Assembly (NCBI RefSeq): GCF_034479375.1
Contig: NZ_CP140155.1
Span: 3,038,001-3,102,000 of the forward strand
Source of the DNA: Rhodopseudomonas palustris
GTDB taxonomy: Bacteria > Pseudomonadota > Alphaproteobacteria > Rhizobiales > Xanthobacteraceae
Length of the DNA stretch: 64,000 nt
Direction of reading: 5' to 3'
The translations under genes were made by a program, and so were the position numbers. Numbering within the stretch: the first letter of the stretch is position 1; each line of letters starts with the position of its first letter. The notes under the pieces were generated by a model. The model searched no databases. It saw only the letters and a list, made by a program, of their open reading frames with translations, and had not been told where the DNA came from. Below are positions 14,031-45,640 of this stretch, one piece after another.

Positions 14031-14819
14031 TCACTTGAGTGAGCCGAGCCTCCGTGACGCTCGGGTCGCCGATGCCTTGACCAGTTCGCAGAGCTCTTCG
14101 ATGGCGCGAGCCGACAATCGCTGCCGTGGCACGGCGCCGCTCAGGGCAGCGATGATACCACCGCTGGCGTCGCGAATAGGGGCGCCGACGGCGAAGACAT
14201 TTTCGAGGTTTTCCTCGTCGCAAACGACGTAGCCCAGCCGACGACCTTCCTTGAGGTCTTTGAGGACTGCGGATACCGAGCGCTTTGTCTTCTTCGTCAG
14301 CTGTTTGAGCGGGCCGGTGCCGAGCAGCGCCTGGACTTCGTCGTCCGAGCTGTCGAGCAGCAGAGCTTTGCCGAGCGCCGTCGAATGAAGATAGGTCCGT
14401 GACCCCGGCGCATTGGTGATCGAGATCGGGCCGCCGCTCTGCACCGTCGCCAGATACACGACATCCTGGCTGCGGAGCACGCCAAGGAAGCTATTTACCT
14501 GATGCTGCTCGGCAAGCAGGTGCAGTTCAGGTGCAGTGGCGGCGTTGAGGTCGGTCGAGGCAAGAAAAGCAGAGCCGATCTGGAACGCCTTGTAGCCGAT
14601 CTTCCACTTCGAATTGCCGAGCGACTTCTCGACGAAGCCGGCTTCGGACAAAGTGTTGATCAAGCGCTGCGCGATGCTCGGCGCCACGCCGAGCTGGCGG
14701 CCCAGTTCGCGTACGCCGAGCTCCCCCTCCCGCCCCAACAACTCCAGCACCGCCAAAGCGCGCGCGACGGTCTGACTTCCGGTCGCCGTCTTTCCCACAC
14801 TAACCATTTGGATGGCCAT
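14031..14819 (-). CDS. IclR-family transcriptional regulator (copy 1)
   Basis: 262 residues. N-terminal winged helix (about 15-75: SQTVARALAVLELLG, GVRELGRQLGVAPSIAQRLI) and C-terminal IclR effector domain (about 90-255) with HSTALGKALLLDSS and the late AALSGAVPRQRL block. It lies 87 nt after cofD in the same direction, so it may be the last gene of the long F420 operon. It is paralogous to the IclR gene at 42365-43156 (shared SQ(T/S)VARA, LGVLR, SLSGAVPRQ-like blocks). It is a candidate reader of the 25-bp motif described in the findings. Confidence 0.9.
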   Translation of the reverse strand: MAIQMVSVGKTATGSQTVARALAVLELLGREGELGVRELGRQLGVAPSIAQRLINTLSEAGFVEKSLGNSKWKIGYKAFQIGSAFLASTDLNAATAPELHLLAEQHQVNSFLGVLRSQDVVYLATVQSGGPISITNAPGSRTYLHSTALGKALLLDSSDDEVQALLGTGPLKQLTKKTKRSVSAVLKDLKEGRRLGYVVCDEENLENVFAVGAPIRDASGGIIAALSGAVPRQRLSARAIEELCELVKASATRASRRLGSLK

Positions 14820-14906
14820 CCCAGCGACATTTAGCTGCTGCGCCCGCCCGATCCCGCAGCCTCGACGAACGATGCGGATACTCGGTTGCCGGCGTCATTT
14901 CAAAAC

Positions 14907-15896
14907 CTATTTAGTCGAGGCCGGGGGGTGATCGAAGGCGGGGGTTTGGAGCAGCGCTCGGGCGAAAGCGAGGCAAGCGCCGGCGAGCTCGATCCGATCG
15001 GCCTTCGAGCGCATTACGGTCGACTCCACGCGGACGGCCATGCCCAGCGCCGCAATCTCCGCCGCCAGAGCTTCATCGCAATTGTCGATGACGATGCCGT
15101 CGGCGAGGCCGCGATAATGCGCGGCGACGCCGAGCGCCGACACCGGCGCCTTCAGCTCCTGCATGATCTTGGCCGCAGGCCCCTTGATGGCGGCGCCGCC
15201 GACGATCGGCGACACCACGATGATCGGTACGCCGAGCCCCTTCAGCCACGACCTCGCGCCGGGCACAGCCAGGATCGGATCAATGCTGAGATAAGGGTTC
15301 GACGGGCAGATGATCACGGCCGCCGGCCGCGGCAGCGCGCCGATCGCCGGATTGAGCCGCGCCGCCGCGGCGCCGGCAAACTCGATGCGATCGACCGGCA
15401 CGCCGCAGGCCAACCGCACGAAATATTCCTGGAACGCGATGCTGCGGCCGCCGCTGTGGATCACGGTTCGCACCGGATCGTCCGACATCGGCAGCAGGCG
15501 CGAGGTGACGCCGAGCGCGGCGCCAAGCTCGACGGTGACCTCGGTGAGCGTCGCACCTTCGCGCAGACGGTTGGTGCGGTAGGCATGGGTCGCGAGATCG
15601 CGGTCGCCGAGCTTGAACCAGGCCGGCCCGCCGAGCCGCGCCAGTTGCTCCATGAAGCCCCACGTCTCGCCTTCGAGGCCCCAGCCCTGCTGACTGTTGG
15701 CCACGCCGCCCAGCGTGTAGGTGACCGTGTCGAGGTCGGGGCTGATGTGGAAGCCGAGGTGCTCGAAATCGTCGCCGGTGTTGACGATAACGGTGAGCCG
15801 GTCGCCGAGCAGATGCGCCAGGCCGTCCGCCAGCTTGGCGCCCCCGACGCCGCCGGCGAGTGCTATGATGTGATCGTCTGCAACAGGCGCGGTCAT
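14907..15896 (-). CDS. cofD: CofD/FbiA: LPPG:Fo 2-phospholactate-type transferase
   Basis: 329 residues. Transfers the phospholactyl (or equivalent) group from a GDP-activated precursor to the deazaflavin Fo, giving F420-0 or dehydro-F420-0. Signatures: N-terminal GGVGGAKLADGLAHLL, NTGDDFEHLGFHISPDLDT (Fo/metal site), PAWFKLGDRDLATHAYR, and CPSNPYLSIDPIL. It overlaps cofE by 4 nt. It ends the cof part of the long minus-strand operon. Which 3-carbon unit is used (phospholactate, PEP or 3-phosphoglycerate) cannot be read from the sequence by eye. Confidence 0.95.
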   Translation of the reverse strand: MTAPVADDHIIALAGGVGGAKLADGLAHLLGDRLTVIVNTGDDFEHLGFHISPDLDTVTYTLGGVANSQQGWGLEGETWGFMEQLARLGGPAWFKLGDRDLATHAYRTNRLREGATLTEVTVELGAALGVTSRLLPMSDDPVRTVIHSGGRSIAFQEYFVRLACGVPVDRIEFAGAAAARLNPAIGALPRPAAVIICPSNPYLSIDPILAVPGARSWLKGLGVPIIVVSPIVGGAAIKGPAAKIMQELKAPVSALGVAAHYRGLADGIVIDNCDEALAAEIAALGMAVRVESTVMRSKADRIELAGACLAFARALLQTPAFDHPPASTK

Positions 15897-16651
15897 CGAA
15901 ACATATCCATGTGTTTGGGCCGCAACAGATCGCGCGCGGTGCCGATGCCGGCGAGATCGACCCCGCGCACCACGACGACCGGCGTGGCCTCAGCCGCCTG
16001 CCCCATCAGCAGCGACGCCGCCGCCGCGACTTCGTCGGCTGCGCCGACCTCGGTGGTCTCGAGCTTGCGGCCGAACAGGTCCGGCTGGCCGCGCAGATCG
16101 CGCATCGTGGCGATGCCGCTGGCGCCGATCGTGGTGCCGATCGTGCCGTTGCGCCAGGCGCGCCCGATGCTGTCAATGATCATCACGCCGACCGCCGCAC
16201 CGATCTCGGCAACCAGCCGCTCCCGGATCCGCTGCGCCGACGCGTCGGGATCGAGCGGCAGCAGCAGCGCGGTTTCGCCCTCCACATTGGAGCGGTCGAT
16301 GCCGGCATTGGCAAGCACCAGGCCGAGCCGATGCTCGACGATGATCACGCCAGGCCGAACGCGCAGCACCTCACTTGATTCCGCGAGGATCAATTCTACG
16401 ATCCGCGGATCCTTGTGGGCCGCCTCCGCGATCTCGATCGCACGGGCCGATGGCGTGACGCCGGACAGATCAATGCCGCGGCCTTCGGCCTTCGAGACCA
16501 CTTTCTGCGCGATCACGACGATGTCGTGATCCTGCAGGTGCCGGCCGCAATCCGCCAGCGATGCCAGGATCAGACCGGCCAGGTCGTCACCGGGCTCGAC
16601 CAGCGGCACGCCCTCCAGGGCGAAAATCTCCAAAGCACGTCGGACCGACAA
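15893..16651 (-). CDS. cofE: CofE: coenzyme F420-0:L-glutamate ligase
   Basis: 252 residues. GTP-dependent ligase that builds the gamma-glutamyl tail of F420. Family blocks: HDIVVIAQKVVSKAEGR, GLVLANAGIDRSNVEGE, VMIIDSIGRAWRNGTIGTTIG and RGQPDLFGRKLETTEVGAADE (spread over two strands). It is the single-domain archaeal-type length: it lacks the C-terminal nitroreductase-like domain of mycobacterial FbiB, which reduces dehydro-F420-0. 10 nt after npdG and overlapping cofD. Confidence 0.95.
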   Translation of the reverse strand: MSVRRALEIFALEGVPLVEPGDDLAGLILASLADCGRHLQDHDIVVIAQKVVSKAEGRGIDLSGVTPSARAIEIAEAAHKDPRIVELILAESSEVLRVRPGVIIVEHRLGLVLANAGIDRSNVEGETALLLPLDPDASAQRIRERLVAEIGAAVGVMIIDSIGRAWRNGTIGTTIGASGIATMRDLRGQPDLFGRKLETTEVGAADEVAAAASLLMGQAAEATPVVVVRGVDLAGIGTARDLLRPKHMDMFR

Positions 16652-16661
16652 ACGACACTCC

Positions 16662-17327
16662 TCAGGGGAGACCGGTGATCCGCACTCCCGCGTCGGGAAT
16701 CTTATAGAATTTGTTGATCCAGATCAGCGCCGAAGTGAGGCTCTCGGACACCACCGAATTCGCCAGCGGCCCGATGTCGATCCCGCGCAGGCCGGCATCG
16801 ACCGCGAGCTGCATCACCGTGGCACGCGCCTCCTTGTCGTCACCGGCCACCAGGACATCGCAGTCGATCGCGTAATCCGGATCCTTCAGCTTGTGCGCCG
16901 AGACGTTCTGGAACGCCGACACCACCCGCACGCCGTCGCCGAGCAGCGCCTGCACCGCGACCACGCAGGAGTCGGTCTCGGGCAGTTGCACCCGGGACAC
17001 CTTGGGCGGCACCAGCGGCACCGTCACGTCGACCAGAATCTTGCCCTGCAATGCCTCCTTCAGCCCCTGCACCGTCGCGATCTGCGCCTGATACGGCACC
17101 GTCAGCACGACGATATCGGCATCGACGACGCCGGCGCTGCTCTCGGCTCCTTCGACGTCGGCGCCGCCGAGACGCGCGCCGAGTTCCGCGGCCGCCGTCT
17201 TCGCCTTGGCGGCGTCCCGCGAGGCGATGATCACGCGGTGGCCGTGCTTGGCCCAGCGCATCGCCAACCCGCCACCCTCGGCGCCGGTGCCGCCGACGAC
17301 ACAGATCGTATGAGTTTTCGCAGTCAT
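16662..17327 (-). CDS. npdG: F420-dependent NADP oxidoreductase (Fno/NpdG)
   Basis: 221 residues from the ATG at 17327, preceded by AGAGGA; an in-frame ATG at 17348 is less well placed. Dinucleotide-binding N-terminus ICVVGGTGAEGGGLAMRWA with the R/S site for the NADP 2'-phosphate (IIASRDAAKA), then VVAVQALLGDGVRVVSAFQN and the C-terminal GPLANSVVSESLTSALIWIN helix, all typical of Fno. It exchanges hydride between NADPH and F420, so it can supply F420H2 or recycle it. It is co-transcribed with cofE and cofD. Confidence 0.92.
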   Translation of the reverse strand: MTAKTHTICVVGGTGAEGGGLAMRWAKHGHRVIIASRDAAKAKTAAAELGARLGGADVEGAESSAGVVDADIVVLTVPYQAQIATVQGLKEALQGKILVDVTVPLVPPKVSRVQLPETDSCVVAVQALLGDGVRVVSAFQNVSAHKLKDPDYAIDCDVLVAGDDKEARATVMQLAVDAGLRGIDIGPLANSVVSESLTSALIWINKFYKIPDAGVRITGLP

Positions 17328-17372
17328 GGTATCCTCTGTTCTTGTCACCGGCAGCGCAGGCGCTGCCGGCCT

Positions 17373-18002
17373 TCACACCTCGACGATATCGCCGAGGCGC
17401 ACGTAGTTACGGCCGCCGATCCGGGCGACCGGGGCATACGCCCGGGCATCGATCCTGCAGTTCTGCGTCAGCCCTTCGGCGACATGCATCTCGACGATGC
17501 GACCGACCACCAGATGGTTGGGCGCGTCGCCGAATTGCAGCACCTGGTCGAGCGTGCATTCGAACTGAATCTTGCTGCCGGCCAGGCGCGGCGTCGCGAT
17601 CCGGCGCGACGGCAGCGTCGCGAAGCCGAGCAGATCGGCTTCGCTCACGTCGGGCGGATACTCCTCGCTCGCCTGCTGGACGCGCTGCTCCCATCCTTCG
17701 GGCACCATGTTGATCACGAATTCTCCGGCACGCTGCACGTTGACGAGCGTGTCCTTGGCGTCGCTGCCGCCCGGCCGCGGACCGACCGAAAAACCGAGCA
17801 AGCCCGGATCGACCGCGAGTATCACGAACTGACTGAACGGCGCGGCATTGACGATGCCGCCCGGCCCGAGCGAGGTGACGAACGCGATCGGACGCGGGAT
17901 CACCGCGCCGGTCAGAATCTTGTAGCGGTCGGCACGAGTCAGCGCGGCGAGATCGATCGACTCGAACCGCTGCTCTGCCTCGCCTACCGCCGGCGGGTTC
18001 AC
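17373..18002 (-). CDS. Flavin reductase-like FMN-binding protein
   Basis: 209 residues from a GTG at 18002 that overlaps the preceding stop (GTGA). Flavin_reduct split-barrel domain: RYKILTGAVIPRPIAFVTSL, NAAPFSQFVILAVDPGLLGF (adjacent blocks of the FMN/NAD site), and C-terminal HLVVGRIVEMHV. It may supply reduced flavin to an LLM partner or act as a flavin-dependent reductase; inside an F420 operon it could also be the missing dehydro-F420 reductase (speculative). The longer reading to 18095 lies inside the upstream gene and is rejected. Confidence 0.85.
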   Translation of the reverse strand: MNPPAVGEAEQRFESIDLAALTRADRYKILTGAVIPRPIAFVTSLGPGGIVNAAPFSQFVILAVDPGLLGFSVGPRPGGSDAKDTLVNVQRAGEFVINMVPEGWEQRVQQASEEYPPDVSEADLLGFATLPSRRIATPRLAGSKIQFECTLDQVLQFGDAPNHLVVGRIVEMHVAEGLTQNCRIDARAYAPVARIGGRNYVRLGDIVEV

Positions 18003-19006
18003 GCCGGCACCTTGGCCATCACTTCGGTGCCGAACCATTCGATCTGCTCGTTCATCTCCTCGACCGTATCGGCCGGAAACATCAGCGCGCTGCAATGCTG
18101 CACGCCGATCGACCGCAGCTTCTCGATCTTTTCGAGAATGACATCGGGCGAGCCGACCAGGTTCGCGGTCACCTGATGGCTGAGGTCGCGGCCGGTGTAG
18201 GCCAGCGACACCCGATGCGCGACGAGCCCGCTTTCCATGTAGCGCTTTTCCGCTTCTTCCATGGTCTTGGCGATCGTGCAGGAGAACTGCGGGGCGATCT
18301 CGATTGACGCCGGGTCGCGGCCGAGTTCGGCGGCCCGCGCCTTGAGATCCTTGATCCGCTGCTCCATCTCGGTGAGCGGCCGCCAGCCCGGCAGCCAGCC
18401 CTGGCCGTAGCGTGCCGCGCGTTGGAGCGCCTCGAGATTGTGCCCGCCGATATAAAGCGGAAACGGCTGCACTTTGCTCTTCGGAAACATCTCGACGTCC
18501 TTGAACGAGTAGTAAGCACCTTCGTGGCTGGCGCTGGGCTCGTTGAACAGCATGTCGAGCGCCAGCAGCCCCTCGTCCATCATGTCGCCACGACGCGCCT
18601 TGGCGGCGCGCGAGCCGCCCCAGGCGAGAAACTCCTCCCGATAGGCGCCGAGTCCCACCGCCATGATGAACCGCCCATTCGACATCTGGTCGAGCGAGAT
18701 CGCCTGCTTGGCGAGATACACCGGATCACGCATCGGCAGAACGGTGAGCGCGGTGCCGAGCTTGATCGTCTTGGTGGCGCCGGCGATCGCGGCGAGCACG
18801 ATCAGCGGTTCGTAGAAGTTCGGCGGCTTGCCGGGAAACAGGTCGCGCACGTAGTTCTGCGTGGTGATGTGATCGTTGCCCCACACCGAGTCGTACCCGA
18901 GCCGTTCGCAGAGCTGCGCCTGGGCGATGAAATCCTCGGGTCCCGCGAACGGGATCGGATACATCACGCCCTCGAAACCGGTCGACAGACAGACACTGAA
19001 CTTCAT
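17999..19006 (-). CDS. LLM-class F420-dependent oxidoreductase, type A (copy 1)
   Basis: 335 residues from the ATG at 19006, which has AGGAAA upstream; the ATG at 19018 is an alternative overlapping the previous stop. Luciferase-like TIM barrel: ERLGYDSVWGNDHITTQ (beta2), IKLGTALTVLPMRDPVYLAKQ, SNGRFIMAVGLGAYREEF, LYIGGHNLEALQRAARYGQGW in overlapping blocks. This family moves hydride from or to F420H2 (or FMN) on diverse substrates. It resembles the gene at 40346 far more than its own neighbour. Substrate unknown. Start choice moderate, family secure. Confidence 0.9.
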   Translation of the reverse strand: MKFSVCLSTGFEGVMYPIPFAGPEDFIAQAQLCERLGYDSVWGNDHITTQNYVRDLFPGKPPNFYEPLIVLAAIAGATKTIKLGTALTVLPMRDPVYLAKQAISLDQMSNGRFIMAVGLGAYREEFLAWGGSRAAKARRGDMMDEGLLALDMLFNEPSASHEGAYYSFKDVEMFPKSKVQPFPLYIGGHNLEALQRAARYGQGWLPGWRPLTEMEQRIKDLKARAAELGRDPASIEIAPQFSCTIAKTMEEAEKRYMESGLVAHRVSLAYTGRDLSHQVTANLVGSPDVILEKIEKLRSIGVQHCSALMFPADTVEEMNEQIEWFGTEVMAKVPA

Positions 19007-19014
19007 GCGTTTCC

Positions 19015-19968
19015 TCATGACGATTCTAGGATGGCTTTGATCTGGGCGCCGTCTCGCACCCCGGCGATGACGATCTCGTCGAGCCCGGAGGCGTGATACT
19101 CGGCGAGCCGGCGGCGCAATTGCTCGGGCGTGCCGCTAGCTGCATGGCGGGCGACGATGTCGTCGCCGATCATCGCTTCGGCCCGGCTCCAGTCCTCCGC
19201 CAGCACCGCGTCGTTCAGCGCTTGCTGATCGAGCGTGGTACCCGCCAGACCGAGATTGGTCTTGTGATGCGCGCCGCGCAGCAGAATTGCGAGAATCCGC
19301 CGCAGCCGGTCGTTGGCGTGGCGCTCGTCGTCGTCGACCGAGGCATAGACGAGGCCCGATGTGCGAATCTCGCGGCCCTTGGCGCCCCGCGCGACGCTCT
19401 GCAGCGTCTGCGCAACGAATGGCACAGAGGCACCGGCACTGATCAGGACGCCGTCCGCCTCCGTACCCGCGAGTTCGAGCATCTGCGGACCGGAGGCCGC
19501 CAGCACGATCGGGATATCGGCGCCCGCGGCGGCGAGCCGCCGCCGGTCGGTTCGAAAGGTCTCGCCCTGGAAGGTGACGGTCTCGCCCGACAGCAGCGCC
19601 CGAACCAGCAGCAGCGCTTCGCGCATCGCCCGCAATGGCCTGGCGCCGTCGACGCCGATCGCCGCGAGGTCGGCTGGCGCGCCGACGCCGAGGCACAGCT
19701 TGACGCGGCCAGGGAAGCGCTCCGCAAGCGTGGTTGCCGCCATCGCGATCTGCACGGGATGCTGAGTCAGCGGACTGACCGCCATCAGCGCCACCTTGAG
19801 CCGCCGGGTCTCCGACAAGGTGAGCGCCCCCAGCACCGCGGGATCGCGCAGAAACAGATGGTTGGCGATCCAGATCGTGTCGGCGCCGCCGGCCTCGCCG
19901 GCCGCGACCTTGTCGCCGAACACCGCCGGATCGTCGCGGCCGTCGCTGGAGATGGAGAGCTCAGACAA
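19015..19968 (-). CDS. LLM-class F420-dependent oxidoreductase, type B (copy 1)
   Basis: 317 residues from a TTG at 19968 that overlaps the coxS-like stop by 8 nt. Luciferase-like fold: GGADTIWIANHLF, LKVALMAVSPLTQHPVQIAM, FPGRVKLCLGVGAP, PIVLAASGPQMLELAG, GTPEQLRRRLAEYHASGLDEI. It is paralogous to the gene at 41394. In both operons a type B gene is next to a type A gene, which suggests a heteromeric pair or two consecutive steps. Confidence 0.88.
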   Translation of the reverse strand: MSELSISSDGRDDPAVFGDKVAAGEAGGADTIWIANHLFLRDPAVLGALTLSETRRLKVALMAVSPLTQHPVQIAMAATTLAERFPGRVKLCLGVGAPADLAAIGVDGARPLRAMREALLLVRALLSGETVTFQGETFRTDRRRLAAAGADIPIVLAASGPQMLELAGTEADGVLISAGASVPFVAQTLQSVARGAKGREIRTSGLVYASVDDDERHANDRLRRILAILLRGAHHKTNLGLAGTTLDQQALNDAVLAEDWSRAEAMIGDDIVARHAASGTPEQLRRRLAEYHASGLDEIVIAGVRDGAQIKAILESS

Positions 19969-20428: not shown

Positions 20429-20429
20429 G

Positions 20430-38558: not shown

Positions 38559-40304
38559 ATGGACGTCCACGCCCCTCACGCCGATCCGATGAACGTGATC
38601 CATCAGCAGATCATGTGGGATCGCCTGATCTCCGTGGTCGAAGAACAGGCCCAGACCCTGATCCGGATCGGCTTCAGCACCTCGACCCGCGAAGCCGGCG
38701 ACGTCTCGGCCGGCGTGTTCAACACCGCCGGTCACATGCTCGCGCAGGCCGTCACCGGCACGCCCGGCCACGTCAATTCGATGGCGCGCGCGGTGGTGCA
38801 TTTCCTCGACAAGTTTCCGGCGACGACGATGCGGCCCGGCGATATCTTCATCACCAACGATCCGTGGAAGGGCACCGGCCATCTCCACGACTTCACGGTG
38901 GTGACGCCCGTCTTCCGCGCCGACCGGCTGGTCGCGCTGTTCGCCAGCACCTGCCACGTCATCGACATCGGCGGACGCGGCATGGGCCCGGACGCCCGCC
39001 AAGTGTTCGAGGAAGGCGTCTTCATCCCGATCATGCGCTTCGCCAGCGCCGCCGGCACCAACGAGACGCTGCTCGAGATCATCAAGGGCAATGTCCGCGA
39101 GCCCGTGCAGGTCGTCGGCGACCTCTATTCGCTGGCCGGCTGCAACGATGTCGGCGGCCGGCAGCTCCTGAAGATGATGGACGAATTCAGCATCGAGACG
39201 CTCGACCGTCTCGGCGATCACATTCTGGAGCGGTCGCGCGTCGCCACGCTGGAGGCGATCCGCGCGCTGCCGAAAGGCACGTTCCGCAACAGCATGCGGG
39301 TCGACGGCTACGACAGACCGCTCGATCTGGTCGCGACGATGACGATCTCCGACGACGGCATCGATGTCGACTTCGCCGGCACCTCGCCGCCCTCGTCCTT
39401 CGGCATCAACGTGCCGTTCTGCTACACTGAGGCCTATGCGAGCTTCGGCGTGAAATGCATCATCGCACCGAAGATCCCGAACAACGAAGGCTCGCTGGCG
39501 CTGCTGCGGATGCGCGCGCCGACGGATTGCATCCTCAACGCGCAGCCGCCGCTTCCCGTCGCCACGCGCCATATCGTCGGTCAGATGCTGCCCGATCTGG
39601 TGATCGGCTGCCTCGGCCAGGCGCTTCACGGCAACGTCCCGGCGGAAGGCACCTCGTGTCTTTGGAACCTGTTCGCCTTCGGCGGCTCCAGCCAGATCGA
39701 CGCCGACTCCACCGAGATGATGCGGGCCCGCGTGTTCAACGTGATGTCGTTCCATTCCGGCGGCACCGGCGCGCGGCCGGGCAAGGACGGCCTGTCGGCC
39801 ACCGCCTTCCCGAGCGGTGTGCGCAACGTGCCGGTGGAGGTCACCGAGGCGATGTCGCCGCTGCTGGTCAAGCGCAAGGAATATCGCACCGACTCCGGCG
39901 GCCCCGGCCAATTCCGCGGCGGCCTCGGCCAGGTGATGGAAGTCGTCAGCCTCGACGACACCGCCTTCGCGATCTCCGCCAACTACGACCGCGTCGATTT
40001 CCCCGCCCGCGGCCGCGATGGCGGCGCCGACGGCAAGGCCGGCAAGATCTCGCTCGGCTCCGGCAGGCTGCTGAAGAGCAAGGGCCAGCAGACCATTCCG
40101 CGCGGCGAAGCCGTGCTGATCGAAATGCCGGGCGGCGGCGGCCTCGGCGATCCCTTCACCCGGGATGCCGCAGCGGTCGCCGCGGACGTGCACCTCGGCA
40201 TGGTGTCGCGCGAGGCCGCCGAGACGGCCTACGGCGTCGTGCTGCGCGGCGACCACTCCGTCGACGAAACCGCGACCGCCGCACGCCGCGGCCATCGCGC
40301 CTGA
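38559..40304 (+). CDS. hyuB: Hydantoinase/oxoprolinase family subunit B (HyuB)
   Basis: 581 residues. N-terminal Q(I/L)MWDRLISVVEEQAQTL region, then SAGVFNTAGHMLAQAVTGTPGH (split), DIFITNDPWKGTGHLHDFTVV with conserved metal His residues, and C-terminal RTDSGGPGQFRGGLGQ and PGGGGLGDPFTRD. Catalytic partner of HyuA. Pairing with a Liv-type importer suggests that the imported compound is a hydantoin-, oxoproline- or other lactam/imide-like molecule. Confidence 0.93.
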   Translation: MDVHAPHADPMNVIHQQIMWDRLISVVEEQAQTLIRIGFSTSTREAGDVSAGVFNTAGHMLAQAVTGTPGHVNSMARAVVHFLDKFPATTMRPGDIFITNDPWKGTGHLHDFTVVTPVFRADRLVALFASTCHVIDIGGRGMGPDARQVFEEGVFIPIMRFASAAGTNETLLEIIKGNVREPVQVVGDLYSLAGCNDVGGRQLLKMMDEFSIETLDRLGDHILERSRVATLEAIRALPKGTFRNSMRVDGYDRPLDLVATMTISDDGIDVDFAGTSPPSSFGINVPFCYTEAYASFGVKCIIAPKIPNNEGSLALLRMRAPTDCILNAQPPLPVATRHIVGQMLPDLVIGCLGQALHGNVPAEGTSCLWNLFAFGGSSQIDADSTEMMRARVFNVMSFHSGGTGARPGKDGLSATAFPSGVRNVPVEVTEAMSPLLVKRKEYRTDSGGPGQFRGGLGQVMEVVSLDDTAFAISANYDRVDFPARGRDGGADGKAGKISLGSGRLLKSKGQQTIPRGEAVLIEMPGGGGLGDPFTRDAAAVAADVHLGMVSREAAETAYGVVLRGDHSVDETATAARRGHRA

Positions 40305-40345
40305 TCCGATCCACACCGATTCCACATTCGCCGAGGAAACCGAAG

Positions 40346-41359
40346 ATGAGCCTGATCCTGAGCGCCGGCCTGCCCACTGGAATGGAAGGCCTCACCTATC
40401 CGATCCCCTTCTCCACCCCGGAGACACTGATCAAGATCGCCCAGCACGCCGAGAAGCTCGGCTATCACTCGGTCTGGGGCAACGACCACATGACCACGCA
40501 GCATTATGTGCGCGAGGAATTCCCGGTGCCGCCGCGGTTCTGGGAGCCGCTGATGACCTACGCGTTCATCGCCGCGAACACCACGACGCTGCGCTTCGGC
40601 ACCGGCATCCTCGTGCTGCCGATGCGCCGCGACATCGTGGTCGTCGCCAAGCAGATCGCGACGCTCGATCACTTCAGCGGCGGCCGGCTCGAAATCGGCG
40701 TCGGCGTCGGCGCCTACAAGGAGGAGTTCGACGCACTCCGTCCCGAAGGCGGCGCCCATCGCGGCGACATGGTCGAGGAGGGCGTCAAGGCGCTGCAACT
40801 GCTGTTCAAGGACCGCGTCGCCTCGTTCGAGGGCAAATACTACAACTACAAGGACGTCGAATTCTTCCCGAAGCCGAAGCAGGCGCGGCTGCCGATCTAT
40901 TTCGGCGGCAACAACGAGAACCACATCCGCCGCGTCGCGGAGACCGCGGACGGCTGGATCCCGGCCGGCATGCCCGCCGCCAAGCTCAAGAGCATGGCCG
41001 CGCGCATGATGGAGATGGTGGTGGCGAACGGTCGCGATCCCGCGCAGATTTCCGTCGCGCCGCAATTCATCGTCCACGGCGCCAGGAATCAGGAAACCGC
41101 CGTCGCCCGCTACAAGCAGAGCCAGATGCACAAGCACCTCCTGTCGCTGTCGAAATCGACGCTCAAGGAGGAAGCCGGGCTGGCGATGGAGGACATCAAC
41201 CTGATCGGCACGCCGGACGTGATCCTGGAGAAGATCGCGAAGCTGAAGGACGCCGGCGTCACCCATCTGCTCGGCATGTATTTCGCGGCGAACGACGTCC
41301 AGGAACTGCTGGACCAGATGCAGTTCTTCGCCGAAGAGGTGATGCCGCGGATCGAGTGA
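40346..41359 (+). CDS. LLM-class F420-dependent oxidoreductase, type A (copy 2)
   Basis: 337 residues from the ATG at 40346, with GAGGAAA upstream. It parallels the gene at 17999 block for block: GLTYPIPF, KLGYHSVWGNDHMTTQHYVR, FGTGILVLPMRRDIVVVAKQ, GGRLEIGVGVGAYKEEFD, LPIYFGGNNENHIRRVAE. F420- (or FMN-) dependent hydride transfer. It lies 41 nt after hyuB, so oxidation/reduction probably precedes or follows HyuAB hydrolysis. Confidence 0.9.
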   Translation: MSLILSAGLPTGMEGLTYPIPFSTPETLIKIAQHAEKLGYHSVWGNDHMTTQHYVREEFPVPPRFWEPLMTYAFIAANTTTLRFGTGILVLPMRRDIVVVAKQIATLDHFSGGRLEIGVGVGAYKEEFDALRPEGGAHRGDMVEEGVKALQLLFKDRVASFEGKYYNYKDVEFFPKPKQARLPIYFGGNNENHIRRVAETADGWIPAGMPAAKLKSMAARMMEMVVANGRDPAQISVAPQFIVHGARNQETAVARYKQSQMHKHLLSLSKSTLKEEAGLAMEDINLIGTPDVILEKIAKLKDAGVTHLLGMYFAANDVQELLDQMQFFAEEVMPRIE

Positions 41360-41393
41360 CACCGCGCATCGCGCATTTCCGGAAAGGCGCCCC

Positions 41394-42359
41394 ATGACCA
41401 GCACGCTCGGCCTCTCTTTCGACGGCGGCGAGACCACCGAGGCATTTCGCGCGATGATCGAACTGGGCGATCGCGGTGGCGCCTCGACGGCCTGGCTCGC
41501 CTCGCATTTGTTCCAGCGCGAACCGATCTCCTCGGCCGCGATCGCGCTCGGCGCCACCAGCCGGATCAGCATCGCCCTGATGGCGATGAGCCCGTATTCG
41601 GTCCATCCGCTCTACGCCACCATGGCCGCGGCGACGCTGGACGAGTACTTCCCCGGCCGCGTCAAACTGTGCTTCGGCGTCGGCGCGCCGCGCGATCTCG
41701 AAGCCGCGGGACTCGTCGCCGAGCATCCGCTCGGCACGCTGCGCGAGGCGATCGCGCTGGCGCGGGCGCTGCTCGGCGGCGAAACGGTCGATTTCAACGG
41801 CGAGCGCTTCAAGGTCTCGGGTCGACGGCTGTCGACCGGCGCGCGCGACGTCCCGATCTATCTGGCCGCCTCGGGCCCGCAAATGCTCGAACTCGCCGGC
41901 GCCGCCGCCGATGGCGTGCTGATCAGCGCGGCGACCTCGCCGGCTTTCATCCGCTGGACGCTCGATCTCGTCCGCAAGGGCGAAGAGAAAGCCGGCCGGG
42001 TCATCAAGAAGACGGCGCTCGTCTATGTTTCGGCCGATGCCGACGAGACCACCGCCCGCGACCGCCTGCGTCGCACCCTCGGTTTCATCCTGCGCGGCCA
42101 GCACCATGCCCGCAATCTCGAACTCGCGGGCACGACGCTCGACCAGGCCGCGCTGGCCGCGGCGTACGCGCGCGAAGACTGGGACGCGGTGAACGCGCTG
42201 GTGACGGACGATGTGGTGATGCGCCACAGCGCCAGCGGCACACCGGAGCAGGTCCGTGCGGCGTTCGCGGCGTATGAGGATGTCGGCGTCGACGAGATCG
42301 TGGCGTCCGGCATGGGCACCCCCGCCGACCTGCGGCAACTCCTCGATGCGCTCAAATAG
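41394..42359 (+). CDS. LLM-class F420-dependent oxidoreductase, type B (copy 2)
   Basis: 321 residues. Paralogue of the gene at 19015: GGASTAWLASHLF, ISIALMAMSPYSVHPLYATM, FPGRVKLCFGVGAP, PIYLAASGPQMLELAGAAAD, SASGTPEQVRAAF. Last gene of the liv-hyu operon, converging with iclR copy 2 across 5 nt. The second A+B pair in the window. Confidence 0.89.
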   Translation: MTSTLGLSFDGGETTEAFRAMIELGDRGGASTAWLASHLFQREPISSAAIALGATSRISIALMAMSPYSVHPLYATMAAATLDEYFPGRVKLCFGVGAPRDLEAAGLVAEHPLGTLREAIALARALLGGETVDFNGERFKVSGRRLSTGARDVPIYLAASGPQMLELAGAAADGVLISAATSPAFIRWTLDLVRKGEEKAGRVIKKTALVYVSADADETTARDRLRRTLGFILRGQHHARNLELAGTTLDQAALAAAYAREDWDAVNALVTDDVVMRHSASGTPEQVRAAFAAYEDVGVDEIVASGMGTPADLRQLLDALK

Positions 42360-42364
42360 CCGCG

Positions 42365-43156
42365 TCAGCGCCCGCGACCGCCGGACGGCGCCGACGGCGC
42401 CCCCATCTTGCGCGAGACGCTGTCGGCCGCCGACTTCACCAGCGCGTTGACGTGTTCGATCTCGCGCTTGGTCATCCCCTGTCGCGGCACCGCTCCGCTG
42501 AGCGAGGCGATCACCTCGCCCGAAGCGTCCCGCACGGCGGCGCCGACCGAATAGACGTTGACCAGGTTCTCCTCGTCGGAAATCGCGATCCCGGTCTCGC
42601 GGATCTCGCGCAACTCACCGAGCAGCGCGCGGAACGTCACCTTGGTCTTCTTCGTCAGCCGCTTGTAGGGCTCCTTGCCGAGCACCTCGGCGGCCACCTT
42701 GTCGGGCAGCGCAGCGAGCATCACCTTGCCGAAGGCGGTGGAGTGAATCGCGGCGAGCGAGCCGGGCTGATTGTTGATCGCGATCGGGCCGTTGCTCTTG
42801 ACGACCTTGAGATAGACCATCGCGCCGCCACGTAGCACGCCGAGAAAGCTGCTGATCTGGTGCTGTTCGGCGAGCGCCACCAGTTCGGGCGTGCTGGCGC
42901 GGTCGAGATCGTTCTGCGACAGGAACGACGATCCGATCCGGAACGCGCGATAGCCGATGCGGTACTTCTGGGTGTCCGGCGCCTGCTCCGCGAGGCCCGT
43001 CGAGGCCAGCGTGCTCACCAGCCGATGCACGATGGTCGGCGACAGCTCCATGCGCCGGGCGATCTCACGCACGCCGAGCGAACCGTTGTCGGACAGCAGT
43101 TGCAGAATATCGACCGCGCGTGCAACCGACTGACTTTCAGCACCCATCCCGACCAT
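42365..43156 (-). CDS. IclR-family transcriptional regulator (copy 2)
   Basis: 263 residues from the ATG at 43156, chosen because it matches the length of copy 1 (MVGMGAESQSVARAVDILQLL against MVSVGKTATGSQTVARAL). ATGs at 43147, 43180 and 43219 are alternatives. Winged helix about 10-70 (GVREIARRMELSPTIVHRLV), effector domain about 85-255 with IHSTAFGKVMLAALPD and ASLSGAVPRQGM. It lies between the liv-hyu operon and the aldolase unit. A motif copy (site E) overlaps its start, suggesting autoregulation. Confidence 0.9.
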   Translation of the reverse strand: MVGMGAESQSVARAVDILQLLSDNGSLGVREIARRMELSPTIVHRLVSTLASTGLAEQAPDTQKYRIGYRAFRIGSSFLSQNDLDRASTPELVALAEQHQISSFLGVLRGGAMVYLKVVKSNGPIAINNQPGSLAAIHSTAFGKVMLAALPDKVAAEVLGKEPYKRLTKKTKVTFRALLGELREIRETGIAISDEENLVNVYSVGAAVRDASGEVIASLSGAVPRQGMTKREIEHVNALVKSAADSVSRKMGAPSAPSGGRGR

Positions 43157-43179
43157 TCCGATAAACGTAACAGCGTTCA
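43155..43179 (-). promoter_or_regulatory. 25-bp IclR-type motif, site E (iclR copy 2), weak
   Basis: Read on the minus strand: TGAACGCTGTTA, 8 nt (CGTTTATC), GGAAT. Matches site A at 15 of 25 positions with the same spacing. It directly abuts the preferred iclR start, so it would be coding if the ATG at 43180 or 43219 is used. Confidence 0.4.
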
Positions 43180-43329
43180 TGTATAGCGACGGGGCAGCTG
43201 GATTCCAAGCCGAAAGCACTGCGTCTGCTCACCGCTTGTCGGCTCGTCCCGCAATCTGTGCAGCGTTCGCTGGTTTCATGGGCAGTGCGTCGCTTGACAG
43301 GTCGCCGCCCGTCTTCTCTAATCAAGTTC

Positions 43330-43354
43330 GGAACGACGTTCTTTTAATCGGAAC
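43330..43354 (+). promoter_or_regulatory. 25-bp IclR-type motif, site B (aldolase-livK unit)
   Basis: GGAACGACGTTC, 8 nt (TTTTAATC), GGAAC, ending 22 nt before the ATG at 43377. Almost identical in half-sites and spacing to site A, 14 kb away. Confidence 0.7.
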
Positions 43355-43376
43355 ACGTGATGCGGTATCGGCCGTG

Positions 43377-44438
43377 ATGGATTTTGCCAGCGACAACGCC
43401 GTCGGCGCGAGCCCGCGCGTGCTCGAAGCTCTCCTCGCGGCCAATGAGGGCGCCGAGCCGGCCTACGGCCACGATTGCTACAGCGACCGCGCGCGCGCGC
43501 TGCTGAACGAGGTCTTCGAATGCGAGGTCGCGGCTTACTTCGTCGCGACCGGAACGGCGTCGAACGCGCTCGCGCTCGGCGCGATCACCCCGCCTTGGGG
43601 GGCGGTGTTCTGTCATCATCAGGCCCACATCGCCAATGACGAATGCGGCGCGCCGGAAATGTTCACCGCAGGCGCCAAGCTGATCGGCGTCGACGGCGCG
43701 CACGGCAAGATCGATCCGGCCGCCCTGCGCGACATCCTCAGCGGATTCCCCGCGGGCACGGTGCGGCAGGTGCAGCCGGCCTCGCTGTCGCTGTCGCAGG
43801 CGACCGAATGCGGCACGCTTTACGACTGCGGCGAGATCGCCGCACTCGCCGCCATCGCCCACGATCGCGGCTTGGCGGTGCATATGGACGGCGCGCGCTT
43901 CGCCAATGCACTGGTCGCGATCGGATGCACGGCAGCCGAGATGAGCTGGAAGGCCGGCATCGACGTCCTCTCCTTCGGCGCGACCAAGAACGGCGCTTTG
44001 GCCTGCGAGGCCGTGATCTTCTTCGACGAGGCGAAGGCCGCGGCGTTCGCCTATCAGTGCAAGCGCGCCGGCCACGTCCTGTCCAAGGGGCGGATGCTCG
44101 GCGCGCAGATGACCGCCTATCTCGCCGGCGGACACTGGCTCGATCTCGCGCGGCTGGCCAACCGGCGCGCCGCCGAATTGTCGGACGGCCTCACCCGGGT
44201 GCCGGGCGTGCGGCAGGCTTTCGAGCCGCGCGGCAATCAGCTCTTTGCCGCACTGCCCCGGCCGGTCGATGCGGCGCTCAGGAAGGCCGGCGCGCGCTAC
44301 TACGAATGGGGCGACCGCGGCTTCGGGCGGATGCTGACGCCAGGGACCAACGACGTTCTGGTTCGGCTGGTGACGTCCTTCGCGACCTCGGCCGACGACG
44401 TCCGTGCCTTCGTGAGCGCCGCCCGGGGCGCGACGTGA
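43377..44438 (+). CDS. Low-specificity L-threonine aldolase-like beta-eliminating lyase
   Basis: 353 residues from the ATG at 43377; the frame extends upstream to 43179 but would run across site B. Fold-type I PLP enzyme of the threonine aldolase/beta-eliminating lyase family: FASDNAVGASPRVLEALLAAN, YGHDCYSDRA, TGTASNALALGAI, VHMDGARFANAL and SFGATKNGALACEAV with the PLP lysine after GAT. It cleaves a beta-hydroxy amino acid, usually to glycine and an aldehyde. It is placed with the transporter binding protein, so it is probably a late step of the same pathway. Confidence 0.9.
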   Translation: MDFASDNAVGASPRVLEALLAANEGAEPAYGHDCYSDRARALLNEVFECEVAAYFVATGTASNALALGAITPPWGAVFCHHQAHIANDECGAPEMFTAGAKLIGVDGAHGKIDPAALRDILSGFPAGTVRQVQPASLSLSQATECGTLYDCGEIAALAAIAHDRGLAVHMDGARFANALVAIGCTAAEMSWKAGIDVLSFGATKNGALACEAVIFFDEAKAAAFAYQCKRAGHVLSKGRMLGAQMTAYLAGGHWLDLARLANRRAAELSDGLTRVPGVRQAFEPRGNQLFAALPRPVDAALRKAGARYYEWGDRGFGRMLTPGTNDVLVRLVTSFATSADDVRAFVSAARGAT

Positions 44439-44503
44439 GCACGACGCGGAACCAACATTGCTTTTGCTGTAACCCGAACTTCGTAGTCGAGAGAGGCACG
44501 ACG

Positions 44504-45640
44504 ATGCTGATGAAGAGATTGATGGTGGCGATCGGGCTTGCGCTCGCTGCGCCGGTGGCGGCCCATGCACAGAACATCGTGATCGGCGCCAGCGTCCCCG
44601 ATACCGGACCGGCCGCCGCGCCCGCGATATGGCAGCGGTGGGGTTACCAGCTGGCGCTCGACGAGGCCAATGCGGCCGGCGGCGTGCTCGGCAAGAAAAT
44701 CGAGATGCTGGCCTACGATAACCGCTGCAATCCGTCGGAAGCGGTGAACGTCGCCAACAAGCTGATCGAGGCCAAAGTCGTCGCCATCGTCGGCGCACAT
44801 TGTTCGTCGGCGACGCTCGCCACCATGCCGCTGATCGCCGCGGCGAAGATTCCGCTGGTGGACGGCATCGCATCGAGCCCGAAGATCACCGATCTATCCG
44901 GCGTCGGCGGCAACGAATGGACGTTCCGCATCAACCCGTCCGACGACGACATGATGAACGCGCTCGGCATCTATCTGAGCGGCAGCTCGAAGATCAAGCG
45001 TGTGGCCATATTGGGCGAGGACACCGACTTCGGACGCGGCGGCGCCGCGGCCTTCGCGACGGTCGCCAAGAAGTACGGACTCGAGGTGATCTCGACCGAC
45101 TTCCACCCGCAGAGCTATCCGGACTTCACCGCGCTGCTGACGCGCATCCAGCAGAGCAAGCCGGACGCGATCGCGATCTTCCAACTCGCCGGCGATCAGC
45201 TCAACTTCCTGCGCAATGCGATGCAACTCGGCGTGCGGATTCCGTTCATCGGCCGTTTCGACCCCGGCGGCAACAATCTGCAGATCATCCAGGCCGGCGG
45301 CATGGAGGGTTCGATCACCGCATGGACCTACAGCTATCTGGTCGATACGGCCGCCAACAAGGCCTTCGCTGCGGAGATCGAGAAGCGCCACAAGACCACG
45401 CCGGTGTTGCAGACCTGGGCCGGCTACGACGCCATGCGCCTGCTGCTGACGGCGATCAGGAATGCCGGATCGACCGACCCCACGGCGATACGCGACGCGA
45501 TCAAGAAGATCGAATTCACCAACGTCATGGGGGCCAAAGTTACCTTCGACGACCACAACCAGGGCGGCAAGGTCGTGCTGATCGAAGGCGTGGCCGACAA
45601 GAAGGTCAAGATCCTGAAGGAAGTCTCGCTGGCGAACTGA
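44504..45640 (+). CDS. livK: Branched-chain amino acid-type ABC transporter binding protein (LivK/Leu-Ile-Val family)
   Basis: 378 residues from the ATG at 44504 with AGAGG 7 nt upstream. Signal peptide KRLMVAIGLALAAPVAAHA, then type I periplasmic-binding fold: NIVIGASVPDTGPAAAPAI, ANAAGGVLGKKIEMLAYDN, VAIVGAHCSSATLATMPL. It has no partner permease beside it, so it most likely feeds LivHMGF encoded 9 kb upstream. Confidence 0.92.
   Translation: MLMKRLMVAIGLALAAPVAAHAQNIVIGASVPDTGPAAAPAIWQRWGYQLALDEANAAGGVLGKKIEMLAYDNRCNPSEAVNVANKLIEAKVVAIVGAHCSSATLATMPLIAAAKIPLVDGIASSPKITDLSGVGGNEWTFRINPSDDDMMNALGIYLSGSSKIKRVAILGEDTDFGRGGAAAFATVAKKYGLEVISTDFHPQSYPDFTALLTRIQQSKPDAIAIFQLAGDQLNFLRNAMQLGVRIPFIGRFDPGGNNLQIIQAGGMEGSITAWTYSYLVDTAANKAFAAEIEKRHKTTPVLQTWAGYDAMRLLLTAIRNAGSTDPTAIRDAIKKIEFTNVMGAKVTFDDHNQGGKVVLIEGVADKKVKILKEVSLAN

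What the first reader, a model, noticed from the sequence alone, without database searches (positions are those of the whole stretch)
14031..45640. Self-contained F420-dependent catabolic island in an alphaproteobacterium
The whole F420 route (fbiC, cofC, cofD, cofE) and npdG sit in the same operons as four LLM oxidoreductases, a molybdenum hydroxylase, HyuAB, an M24 hydrolase, two PLP lyases, two importers and two IclR regulators. The cofactor genes therefore appear to exist for this pathway. Expected chemistry is uptake, ATP-driven opening of a cyclic amide, hydride transfer, hydroxylation and C-C or C-N cleavage of an amino-acid-like product. I know of no described pathway with this combination; that is a limit of my knowledge, not a database result.
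Basis: inference. Interest (0 to 1): 0.9.

Follow-up and report, generated by a model that had tools for sequence, protein, structure and literature searches.

The report
Mobile F420-dependent catabolic gene island
A purple bacterium carries a movable block of 29 genes that makes the rare hydride carrier F420 together with importers and enzymes that probably reduce and open nitrogen-containing rings, which offers a testable job for F420 in a group of bacteria where its role is unknown.

Summary
In detail: 29 genes (window 13,982-45,720, Rhodopseudomonas) combine the only CofD and FbiC found in this genome with two importers, a Mo hydroxylase, HyuAB, an M24 hydrolase, two PLP enzymes, four luciferase-like (LLM) enzymes and two IclR regulators. 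The block is 94.9% identical to one at another chromosomal site in R. palustris HaA2, with sharp ends: a mobile island of two separable modules. One operator-like box heads the F420 operon and both catabolic operons. Of 391 family genomes 98 have fbiC; the ThrC-like gene occurs in 15, all fbiC+, and LLM4 relatives in 25, 24 fbiC+. Nine of ten compared pairs of FO synthases from one genome are only 61-71% identical. So the cofactor genes do serve catabolism, here and in other gene sets. LLM2 and LLM4 are F420 enzymes by fold or close kinship; LLM1 and LLM3 may use FMN. HyuA relatives are common without F420. Best model: Mo hydroxylation of an N-heterocyclic acid to a lactam, F420H2 ring reduction, hydrolytic opening, PLP cleavage. 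The substrate is unproved.

The parts
13982..45720 (.). Whole island (29 genes), moves as a unit
   Evidence: 94.9% nucleotide identity over 31,758 columns to R. palustris HaA2, no further match in the 2.5 and 5.7 kb fetched beyond its ends; 93.2% to G231 at 14031-45660
14031..14819 (-). IclR1 regulator, last gene of the F420 operon
   Evidence: PF01614, PF09339
14907..15896 (-). CofD
   Evidence: PF01933 149.8 bits; only match found in the genome
15893..16651 (-). CofE
   Evidence: PF01996 265 bits
16662..17348 (-). NpdG, NADPH:F420 oxidoreductase
   Evidence: TIGR01915 193.8 bits, cut-off 149.8
17373..17960 (-). Flavin reductase, NTA-monooxygenase component B type; start uncertain (longest ORF to 18095)
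   Evidence: PF01613; 3bpk 4e-38
17999..19018 (-). LLM1, TIGR03619 luciferase-like oxidoreductase, cofactor undecided
   Evidence: 190.2 bits, cut-off 166.9; predicted fold nearly equally close to FMN luciferases and F420 enzymes
19015..19968 (-). LLM2, Mer-like, probably F420-dependent oxidoreductase
   Evidence: 52% identical to LLM4; PF00296
19961..20440 (-). Mo hydroxylase small [2Fe-2S] subunit (start uncertain)
   Evidence: PF01799, PF00111; 8 Cys
20430..21296 (-). Mo hydroxylase FAD subunit
   Evidence: PF00941, PF03450
21299..21751 (-). CoxG-like protein
   Evidence: PF06240
21753..24020 (-). Mo hydroxylase large subunit
   Evidence: PF02738, PF20256, PF01315; nearest PDB 1rm6; GMGE near the C-terminus
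24022..25536 (-). TctA of tripartite importer
   Evidence: PF01970 518 bits
25533..26030 (-). TctB of tripartite importer (start uncertain)
   Evidence: PF07331 at residues 701-828 of the longer ORF 25533-28037
25982..26947 (-). TctC binding protein
   Evidence: PF03401
26954..28216 (-). Threonine-synthase-like PLP enzyme
   Evidence: PF00291; 1uim 2e-45 with FKDR motif aligned; 15 of 15 positive family genomes are fbiC+
28216..29547 (-). M24 metallohydrolase (prolidase/ectoine-hydrolase superfamily; start uncertain)
   Evidence: PF00557; D, D, H, E, E aligned to a prolidase (that these are the metal ligands is recalled)
29656..30255 (-). CofC
   Evidence: PF01983 66.7 bits
30252..32645 (-). 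FbiC (CofGH), FO synthase; start about 32645 or 32630
   Evidence: PRK09234 1182 bits; candidate starts listed
32753..32770 (-). Operator-like box of the fbiC operon
   Evidence: 3 mismatches to the motif, 12-base core exact; 66 bp around it identical in HaA2 and G231
33077..33094 (+). Operator-like box of the livH operon
   Evidence: 0 mismatches; TTGACG-N17-TAGATT upstream
33122..36487 (+). LivHMGF ABC importer (livH 33122-34009, livM about 34009-34962, livG about 34959-35750, livF 35747-36487)
   Evidence: PF02653, PF00005
36490..38556 (+). HyuA, ATP-dependent cyclic-amide hydrolase subunit
   Evidence: PF01968; CapA model 494.7 bits, cut-off 1000; 7hk5 1e-111, 6yra 7e-107
38559..40304 (+). 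HyuB
   Evidence: PF02538; CapB model 182.3 bits, cut-off 1000
40346..41359 (+). LLM3, TIGR03619 luciferase-like oxidoreductase
   Evidence: 196.1 bits, cut-off 166.9; 46% identical to LLM1
41394..42359 (+). LLM4, Mer-like F420-dependent oxidoreductase
42365..43219 (-). IclR2 regulator
   Evidence: PF01614, PF09339
43338..43355 (+). Operator-like box of ald-livK
   Evidence: 0 mismatches
43377..44438 (+). L-threonine-aldolase-like PLP enzyme
   Evidence: PF01212; 7yvr 3e-99
44504..45640 (+). LivK binding protein
   Evidence: PF13458

Best explanation
A mobile, probably IclR-controlled catabolic island carries its own redox cofactor. Shown from sequence: complete F420 synthesis plus NpdG lie in one 18-gene run with a tripartite importer, Mo hydroxylase, M24 hydrolase and ThrC-like enzyme; one operator-like box heads this run and both liv-side operons; the block sits at a different chromosomal site in a second strain; LLM4 has the fold and nearest relatives of F420-dependent enzymes, and LLM2 is its close paralogue. 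Inferred: small N-heterocyclic carboxylates or lactams are imported (Tct, Liv); the Mo hydroxylase adds oxygen next to the ring nitrogen, giving a lactam; NpdG recharges F420 from NADPH and the Mer-like LLMs transfer hydride to the ring; LLM1/LLM3 do a second hydride transfer or an FMN-type oxygenation; HyuAB (with ATP) or M24 opens the ring; the ThrC-like enzyme and the aldolase cleave the resulting amino acid. The IclR proteins would repress the three operons until substrate appears, so F420 is made on demand.
For: Gene set and operon layout. Sharp-edged block at another site in HaA2: HaA2's flanks map to 0.002-0.138 Mb of this genome, the island here lies near 3.07 Mb. Shared box: 3 sites in 64 kb, 0.23 expected, all at operon heads; none in 40 control stretches at 2 mismatches or fewer, but at the start of M24 in four other loci. 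Co-occurrence with fbiC: ThrC-like 15 of 15, LLM4 24 of 25, LLM1 20 of 22 genomes, base rate 98 of 391; ThrC-like within the genus 5 of 5 fbiC+ against 0 of 11 fbiC-negative. fbiC surroundings outside the genus against controls: LLM 37/56 against 1/40, Mo hydroxylase L 21/56 against 0/40; any cyclic-amide hydrolase 23/61 against 2/40. Two FO synthases per genome, 9 of 10 compared pairs 61-71% identical and in different subclades. LLM4 fold. Combinations of F420 genes, LLM and a cyclic-amide hydrolase in named plasmids: S. meliloti pSymA, A. rubi, Leisingera.
Against: No substrate is known and no enzyme was tested. HyuA relatives are not associated with fbiC (24 of 137 fbiC+, 34 expected). The M24 + ThrC-like pair also occurs on a Mesorhizobium plasmid with no F420 gene listed in the 17 kb shown. 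LLM1's fold ranks FMN luciferases first, Mer about 1 Z behind. Modules A and B separate in other genomes, so they may be two pathways. 31 of 56 fbiC places outside the genus show no Mo hydroxylase within 10 kb on either side. Of the 23 places with a cyclic-amide hydrolase, three carry this island's own HyuA (G231, G108, G169) and most of the rest a PxpA-like gene; the dihydroorotase probe matched 0 of 61. Of ten further F420 plasmid regions looked at besides the three named, one (Variovorax) lists amidohydrolase-type genes, one had no annotation and the others show different neighbours. Two box hits have no clear operon role (G213 at 25125, G335). Controls sit at round coordinates that I chose, and the 61 places were not a random draw.
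Confidence: 0.6

Rival explanations
1. The cofactor genes serve the catabolic genes, but the substrate is not an N-heterocycle: the island breaks down an acyclic or peptide-like amino-acid derivative, M24 acting as a dipeptidase and HyuAB as a carboxylase or in a side reaction.
For: M24 is nearest to prolidases; the Liv importer and the threonine-aldolase-like enzyme suit amino acids; an M24 + ThrC-like pair lies next to amino-acid ABC genes in Mesorhizobium.
Against: Does not explain the Mo hydroxylase; HyuA scores higher with lactam, hydantoin and oxoproline openers than with carboxylases; cyclic-amide hydrolases recur beside fbiC.
Confidence: 0.22
2. F420 is needed for only one kind of step (LLM2 and LLM4). 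LLM1/LLM3 are FMNH2-dependent monooxygenases, LLM1 fed by the neighbouring flavin reductase, so the ring is opened by oxygenation and F420 is peripheral.
For: Flavin reductase of the NTA-monooxygenase component B type lies next to LLM1; LLM1's predicted fold ranks FMN-type enzymes first.
Against: Module B has LLM3 but no flavin reductase; LLM1-like proteins occur with fbiC in 20 of 22 genomes, unexpected for a plain FMN enzyme; the structural ranks differ by only about 1 Z.
Confidence: 0.35
3. Chance clustering: F420 genes and catabolic genes landed together in a hotspot and serve different purposes.
For: F420 clusters elsewhere lie beside other genes: 47 of 50 fbiC loci in the named genome collection (up to 10 kb each side, many contigs shorter) show no M24 or ThrC-like match, and only two of these 47 a distant TctC.
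Against: Overlapping genes in one operon, shared box, co-occurrence across genera, linkage of fbiC with other catabolic gene sets.
Confidence: 0.06
4. The island makes or modifies a secondary metabolite instead of degrading a nutrient.
For: Known bacterial F420 LLMs act in antibiotic pathways (PMC8498797, passages seen).
Against: Two importers with binding proteins, hydrolases and IclR regulators; no synthase, assembly-line or exporter family among the domain hits of the block.
Confidence: 0.06

Closest known systems
F420-dependent picrate / 2,4-dinitrophenol pathway of Rhodococcus and Nocardioides
   Same: F420H2 and LLM-superfamily reductases in aerobic catabolism (PMC8498797, passages seen); an NADPH:F420 reductase belongs to it (recalled)
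   Different: Actinobacterial, nitroaromatic substrates; no Mo hydroxylase, HyuAB, M24 or PLP enzymes known to me there (recalled)
Caprolactamase CapAB / N-methylhydantoinase / 5-oxoprolinase (HyuAB family)
   Same: HyuA and HyuB are nearest to CapA and CapB among NCBIfam models; HyuA to N-methylhydantoinase and oxoprolinase among PDB chains
   Different: Below the CapA and CapB cut-offs; here linked to LLMs and F420
Mer, methylenetetrahydromethanopterin reductase
   Different: About 30% identical and below the Mer cut-offs; a different substrate is expected
Ectoine/hydroxyectoine degradation (EutD/DoeA M24 hydrolase with EutB PLP enzyme)
   Same: M24 ring-opening hydrolase with a fold-II PLP enzyme (the precedent is recalled; M24 hits DoeA models below cut-off)
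   Different: No F420, Mo hydroxylase or LLM in that pathway (recalled)
Nicotinate catabolism through 6-hydroxynicotinate reduction (recalled, Azorhizobium and Eubacterium)
   Same: Mo hydroxylation, ring reduction, hydrolytic opening in that order
   Different: Reductase there is ferredoxin-type (recalled); not compared here
F420 gene clusters of Sinorhizobium meliloti pSymA and an Agrobacterium rubi plasmid
   Same: F420 genes with LLM, ABC importer genes and a cyclic-amide hydrolase (dihydroorotase; Pxp-type oxoprolinase); S. meliloti also has a Mo hydroxylase
   Different: Different ring openers and lower pathways (CoA transferase, GABA transaminase)

Membership tests
Complete F420 biosynthesis | CofG + CofH (or FbiC), CofC, CofD, CofE all present | tested here: met
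Complete F420 biosynthesis | Identity of the 3-carbon linker (2-phospholactate, PEP or 3-phosphoglycerate) | not testable with these tools
   CofE shows no fused reductase domain; a free dehydro-F420 reductase was not sought
Mer (methylene-H4MPT reductase) | Score over the equivalog cut-off | tested here: not met
   LLM4 162.2 against 276 and 147.1 against 348.7; LLM2 139.6 and 117.7
F420-dependent LLM of the Mer/Adf/Fgd fold group (LLM2, LLM4) | Nearest folds are F420-dependent enzymes, ahead of FMN enzymes | tested here: met
F420-dependent LLM of the Mer/Adf/Fgd fold group (LLM2, LLM4) | F420 binding and turnover shown | not testable with these tools
   needs purified protein
TIGR03619 F420-dependent LLM (LLM1, LLM3) | Score over the cut-off | tested here: met
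   190.2 and 196.1 against 166.9
TIGR03619 F420-dependent LLM (LLM1, LLM3) | Uses F420 and not FMN | tested here: inconclusive
NtaA-type two-component FMN monooxygenase (LLM1 + flavin reductase) | LLM over the NtaA/DmoA family cut-off | tested here: not met
   TIGR03860 67 against 279.7
Caprolactamase CapAB | Scores over the equivalog cut-offs | tested here: not met
   494.7 and 182.3 against 1000
4-hydroxybenzoyl-CoA reductase | Alpha subunit over the equivalog cut-off | tested here: not met
   472.5 against 994.55
Xanthine-oxidase-family Mo hydroxylase | L, M and S subunits with the family's domains | tested here: met
Mobile genomic island | Same block at different sites with sharp ends | tested here: met
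   flank genes also elsewhere in HaA2
Mobile genomic island | Integrase, attachment repeats or tRNA at the border | tested here: inconclusive
   no tRNA in the window; no shared word over 9 bases between the two ends here or in HaA2; integrase not sought; an AlpA-like ORF at 46283-46498 lies just outside (name recalled)
F420-dependent nitroaromatic (npd) pathway | Orthologues of the picrate hydride transferases | not tested
   npd sequences were not fetched

The most novel reading that the evidence does not exclude
In Alphaproteobacteria F420 is a catabolic plug-in, not a housekeeping cofactor. FO synthase and its partner genes travel with each ring-reducing catabolic module, so one genome may hold two unrelated sets. 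F420H2 hydrogenates the lactam ring that a Mo hydroxylase has made from an N-heterocyclic acid, an aerobic substitute for ferredoxin- or NADPH-driven ring reduction, before an interchangeable cyclic-amide hydrolase (HyuAB, Pxp-type oxoprolinase, dihydroorotase, dihydropyrimidinase or M24) opens it.
Probability: 0.42. Interest if true: 0.85.

Novelty: new variant of a known kind. Interest (0 to 1): 0.72.

Why it matters
A 2021 review (PMC8498797, section 23 read) states that no F420-dependent reductase or F420-reducing dehydrogenase had been investigated experimentally in F420-producing bacteria outside Actinobacteria, and that trace F420 in Oligotropha and Paracoccus suggests a minor or niche role (a Thermomicrobium enzyme has been solved since). 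This island gives a concrete answer to test: on-demand F420 for a catabolic pathway. It is present in R. palustris HaA2, a named and fully sequenced strain, so one gene deletion and a substrate panel could settle it. It would also help explain why F420 is patchy (5 of 16 genomes in the genus) and why some genomes hold two divergent FO synthases.

Tried and rejected
Considered and set aside: (1) All four LLMs use F420: not established for LLM1/LLM3. (2) HyuA as an F420-linked marker: rejected, 24 of 137 positive genomes are fbiC+ against 34 expected; only the four at 83% identity or more (own, G108, G231, G169) belong to this module and all four are fbiC+. (3) A single pathway: rejected in favour of two modules, since module A (14009-32650) occurs without B in the loci of strains 2.1.18 and HC1, and B (32977-45630) occurs at 80% identity in AZCC 2146 beside a reduced A. 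(4) Mo enzyme as 4-hydroxybenzoyl-CoA reductase: below cut-off. (5) PF04075 search in the own genome found nothing, but no control genome rang, so it shows nothing. (6) Rfam at gathering thresholds and tRNA scans empty. (7) LLM4 search of plasmids: no match. (8) The sigma-70 scan found only the livH promoter at its threshold; the fbiC and ald promoters are my reading of the sequence. (9) Literature: searches listed no described pathway; two papers looked up by DOI were not held. (10) Structure search by plain Foldseek was not obtained; VIA-align 2 was used. (11) A clean empty site was not found: HaA2's two flanks map to this genome at 136-138 kb and 2-7 kb, about 130 kb apart. (12) The flank genes first used to compare sites, the ArsJ-type GAPDH and the sensor kinase, are themselves found at high identity in only 2 of 16 genus genomes, so alone they would be weak evidence; two searches were added for that reason.

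Limits of the counts: the 391 family genomes are a sample drawn by the tool. The 61 fbiC places come from 51 of the 98 fbiC+ genomes, chosen by me (closest matches, two-copy genomes, long contigs), own genome left out; 4 of the 61 stretches are under 15 kb. One search shows, by my reading of its table, 11 of 98 genomes with two near-full-length FbiC; ten of these pairs were compared, the second copy of G149 was not fetched. The 40 controls are at round coordinates I picked in 18 fbiC+ genomes. Hypergeometric and Fisher values ignore relatedness, as does the within-genus contrast. The fbiC-negative exceptions (G004, G261 for LLM1; G010 for LLM4) are counted. The motif was built from two of its three window sites.


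Full report
What is there. The window comes from a Rhodopseudomonas genome (FbiC 94% identical to a R. palustris MAG; own genome 5,305,909 bases, one contig). Between 13,982 and 45,720 lie 29 genes. Minus strand, in order of transcription: fbiC, cofC, M24, ThrC-like, tctC, tctB, tctA, Mo hydroxylase L, coxG, M, S, LLM2, LLM1, flavin reductase, npdG, cofE, cofD, IclR1. The largest gaps are 108 bp (cofC-M24) and 87 bp (cofD-IclR1), and many genes overlap. Plus strand: livH, M, G, F, hyuA, hyuB, LLM3, LLM4; then IclR2 on the minus strand; then ald and livK on the plus strand. The genome searches found one CofD and one FbiC, both here, and five PF00296 proteins, four of them here.

It is a mobile unit. 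The alignment ends at 13982 and 45720, with no match in the 2.5 and 5.7 kb fetched beyond. In HaA2 the island lies at 4.99-5.03 Mb. HaA2's own flanks match this genome at 135,660-137,824 (88%) and 2,188-6,923 (93%), about 3 Mb from the island here. Conversely the window's left-flank GAPDH has its 90% match in HaA2 at 1.87 Mb and the right-flank kinase its 97% match at 3.50 Mb; both genes are themselves found at high identity in only 2 of 16 genus genomes. G231 has the block at 93.2%. Within the genus 5 of 16 genomes have fbiC. The ends share no word longer than 9 bases, no tRNA lies in the window, and an integrase was not sought.

It is two modules. Module A (14009-32650: F420 genes, M24, ThrC-like, Tct, Mo hydroxylase, LLM1, LLM2, flavin reductase) occurs at 88% identity without module B beside it in strains 2.1.18 and HC1. 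Module B (32977-45630: Liv, HyuAB, LLM3, LLM4, IclR2, aldolase, LivK) occurs at 80% in Nitrobacteraceae AZCC 2146 beside a shorter A. The junction is the divergent promoter region of about 485 bp.

One regulon, probably. Comparing the promoter regions gave the motif GTTYNYTTWATCGRAACA. With up to three mismatches it occurs three times in 64 kb (0.23 expected; 0 of 100 shuffles reach three), and all three are at operon heads: fbiC (3 mismatches, 12-base core exact), livH and ald. The motif was built from two of these three sites, so the count is partly by construction. More independent: 66 bp around the fbiC box are identical in HaA2 and G231 although the region is 92-95% identical; relatives carry the box (0 to 2 mismatches) within about 100 bp of where the M24 match begins in G213, G205, G380 and G067:C55, though in G213 and G380 the weak N-terminal end of that match overlaps it, and in a livH-promoter-like stretch of G067:C16; none of 40 control stretches has it at two mismatches or fewer. 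Two further hits, in G213 at 25125 and in G335, have no role I can name. Each box in the window follows a TTGAC-N17 promoter-like sequence closely (my reading; the scan reports only the livH one), a position suited to a repressor. IclR1 or IclR2 is the obvious candidate; binding is untested.

F420 genes and these catabolic genes go together. In 391 genomes of the family fbiC matches occur in 98. ThrC-like (E 1e-80 or better): 15 genomes, all fbiC+. LLM4-like (1e-40): 25, of which 24 fbiC+. LLM1-like (1e-60): 22, of which 20 fbiC+. Expected by chance 3.8, 6.3 and 5.5. HyuA does not follow this: 137 genomes at 1e-150, 24 fbiC+, 34 expected. Conversely 83 of the 98 fbiC+ genomes lack the ThrC-like gene, so F420 is not reserved for this pathway.

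What the other F420 genomes do. I cut 20 kb around 61 fbiC places (51 genomes, chosen, own excluded) and took 40 control stretches. Outside Rhodopseudomonas, LLM genes are present in 37 of 56 places against 1 of 40 controls, Mo hydroxylase L in 21 against 0, Liv permeases in 20 against 3; TctC (6 against 1), HyuAB (2 against 0), ThrC-like (2 against 0) and IclR (3 against 0) are not significantly enriched at this range. A homologue of dihydropyrimidinase, Pxp-type oxoprolinase or HyuAB occurs in 23 of 61 against 2 of 40. The main contributor is a PxpA-like gene, 15 of 61 against 1 of 40; dihydropyrimidinase gives 3 against 1, dihydroorotase 0; three of the 23 are this island's own HyuA. By my reading, 11 of 98 genomes have two near-full-length FbiC. 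Of ten pairs compared, nine are 61-71% identical and one 88%, and the nine sit in different subclades of the FbiC tree. One clade of 13 FbiC holds 12 that lie within about 31 kb of a ThrC-like gene. Against a strict rule: its 13th member, G380 at 4.5 Mb, has none near, while G380's other FbiC, beside M24 and ThrC-like, falls outside that clade. On the whole this fits F420 sets acquired with modules, not duplicated in place.

Named parallels in plasmids. S. meliloti R28 pSymA: dihydroorotase, Liv importer, npdG, cofD, cofC, fbiC, CoA transferase, TIGR03619 LLM, ArgE-like deacylase, transhydrogenase, Mo hydroxylase. A. rubi: biotin carboxylase, PxpA, two carboxyltransferase-domain proteins, LLM, F420 genes, gabT. 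Leisingera caerulea: nucleobase symporter, dihydropyrimidinase, Zn hydrolase, aminotransferase, transhydrogenase, F420 genes, TIGR03842 LLM. Variovorax PBL-E5 has an amidohydrolase, a carbon-nitrogen hydrolase and an LLM. Others looked at show different neighbours: Aromatoleum, two Paraburkholderia, Novosphingobium, Paracoccus, Paenarthrobacter, Rhodococcus; the S. fredii record had no annotation. I looked at a chosen part of the 64 plasmid records with a match.

How it probably works. Import of a small carboxylate (Tct) and an amide or amino-acid-like compound (Liv); Mo hydroxylation next to ring nitrogen gives a lactam; NADPH to F420 by NpdG; hydride from F420H2 to the ring by LLM2 or LLM4; LLM1 or LLM3 a second hydride transfer or an oxygenation; ring opening by M24 (module A) or ATP-dependent HyuAB (module B); the ThrC-like enzyme or the aldolase cleaves the amino acid formed. 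Only the presence, linkage, shared box and fold assignments are shown. Order, substrate and products are inference. The pairing of an M24 ring opener with a fold-II PLP enzyme has a precedent in ectoine degradation (recalled). An M24 + ThrC-like pair without listed F420 genes exists in Mesorhizobium beside amino-acid ABC genes, so these two are probably a lower pathway that is not itself F420-dependent.

Literature. PMC8498797 (search listing, passages, section 23): F420 production shown in a few Proteobacteria, trace amounts in two Alphaproteobacteria, no F420-dependent enzyme investigated there as of 2021; picrate is the named catabolic case in actinobacteria. PMC5794936 (whole text): a Rhizobiales genome report that notes a complete F420 pathway and suggests only a general competitive benefit. 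No listed paper in the searched library described this gene set; the original F420-distribution paper of 2017 was not held.

Verdict. The claim of one pathway is not, and that of four F420 enzymes is unproved for two of them. The chemistry is a plausible proposal, strengthened by recurrent cyclic-amide hydrolases beside F420 genes.

Noticed in passing
L214 (Leisingera caerulea plasmid), 5943-21409: Nucleobase symporter, dihydropyrimidinase, Zn hydrolase, aminotransferase and transhydrogenase divergent from a full F420 set plus TIGR03842 LLM, with no dihydropyrimidine dehydrogenase listed in the 32 kb: the F420 LLM may be the uracil/thymine reductase (the gene table is incomplete).
   Followed up: no
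10745-13912: ArsR-phosphatase fusion, ArsJ-associated GAPDH and ArsJ: an arsenate resistance operon directly left of the island; the GAPDH is found at high identity in only 2 of 16 genus genomes.
   Followed up: partly
46283-46498: 71-residue AlpA-like ORF just right of the island (name recalled), perhaps a remnant of an integrated element.
   Followed up: no
47476-50527: Sensor kinase and LuxR-type response regulator pair; of 16 genus genomes the kinase is found only here and in HaA2 at 97%.
   Followed up: partly
58744-63969: Acyl-CoA ligase beside dipeptide/oligopeptide ABC transporter genes.
   Followed up: no
L207 (S. meliloti pSymA), 6584-30752: F420 set with Mo hydroxylase, TIGR03619 LLM, dihydroorotase and CoA transferase; its CoA transferase has 62-88% identical relatives in 14 of 61 fbiC neighbourhoods, so this variant is common in the sampled family genomes.
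   Followed up: partly
G067:C16 (strain 2.1.18), L090-L091: Second FbiC of one Rhodopseudomonas genome, 88% identical to the first, beside different Liv and Mo hydroxylase genes and diverged copies of LLM3, LLM4 and the ThrC-like gene.
   Followed up: partly
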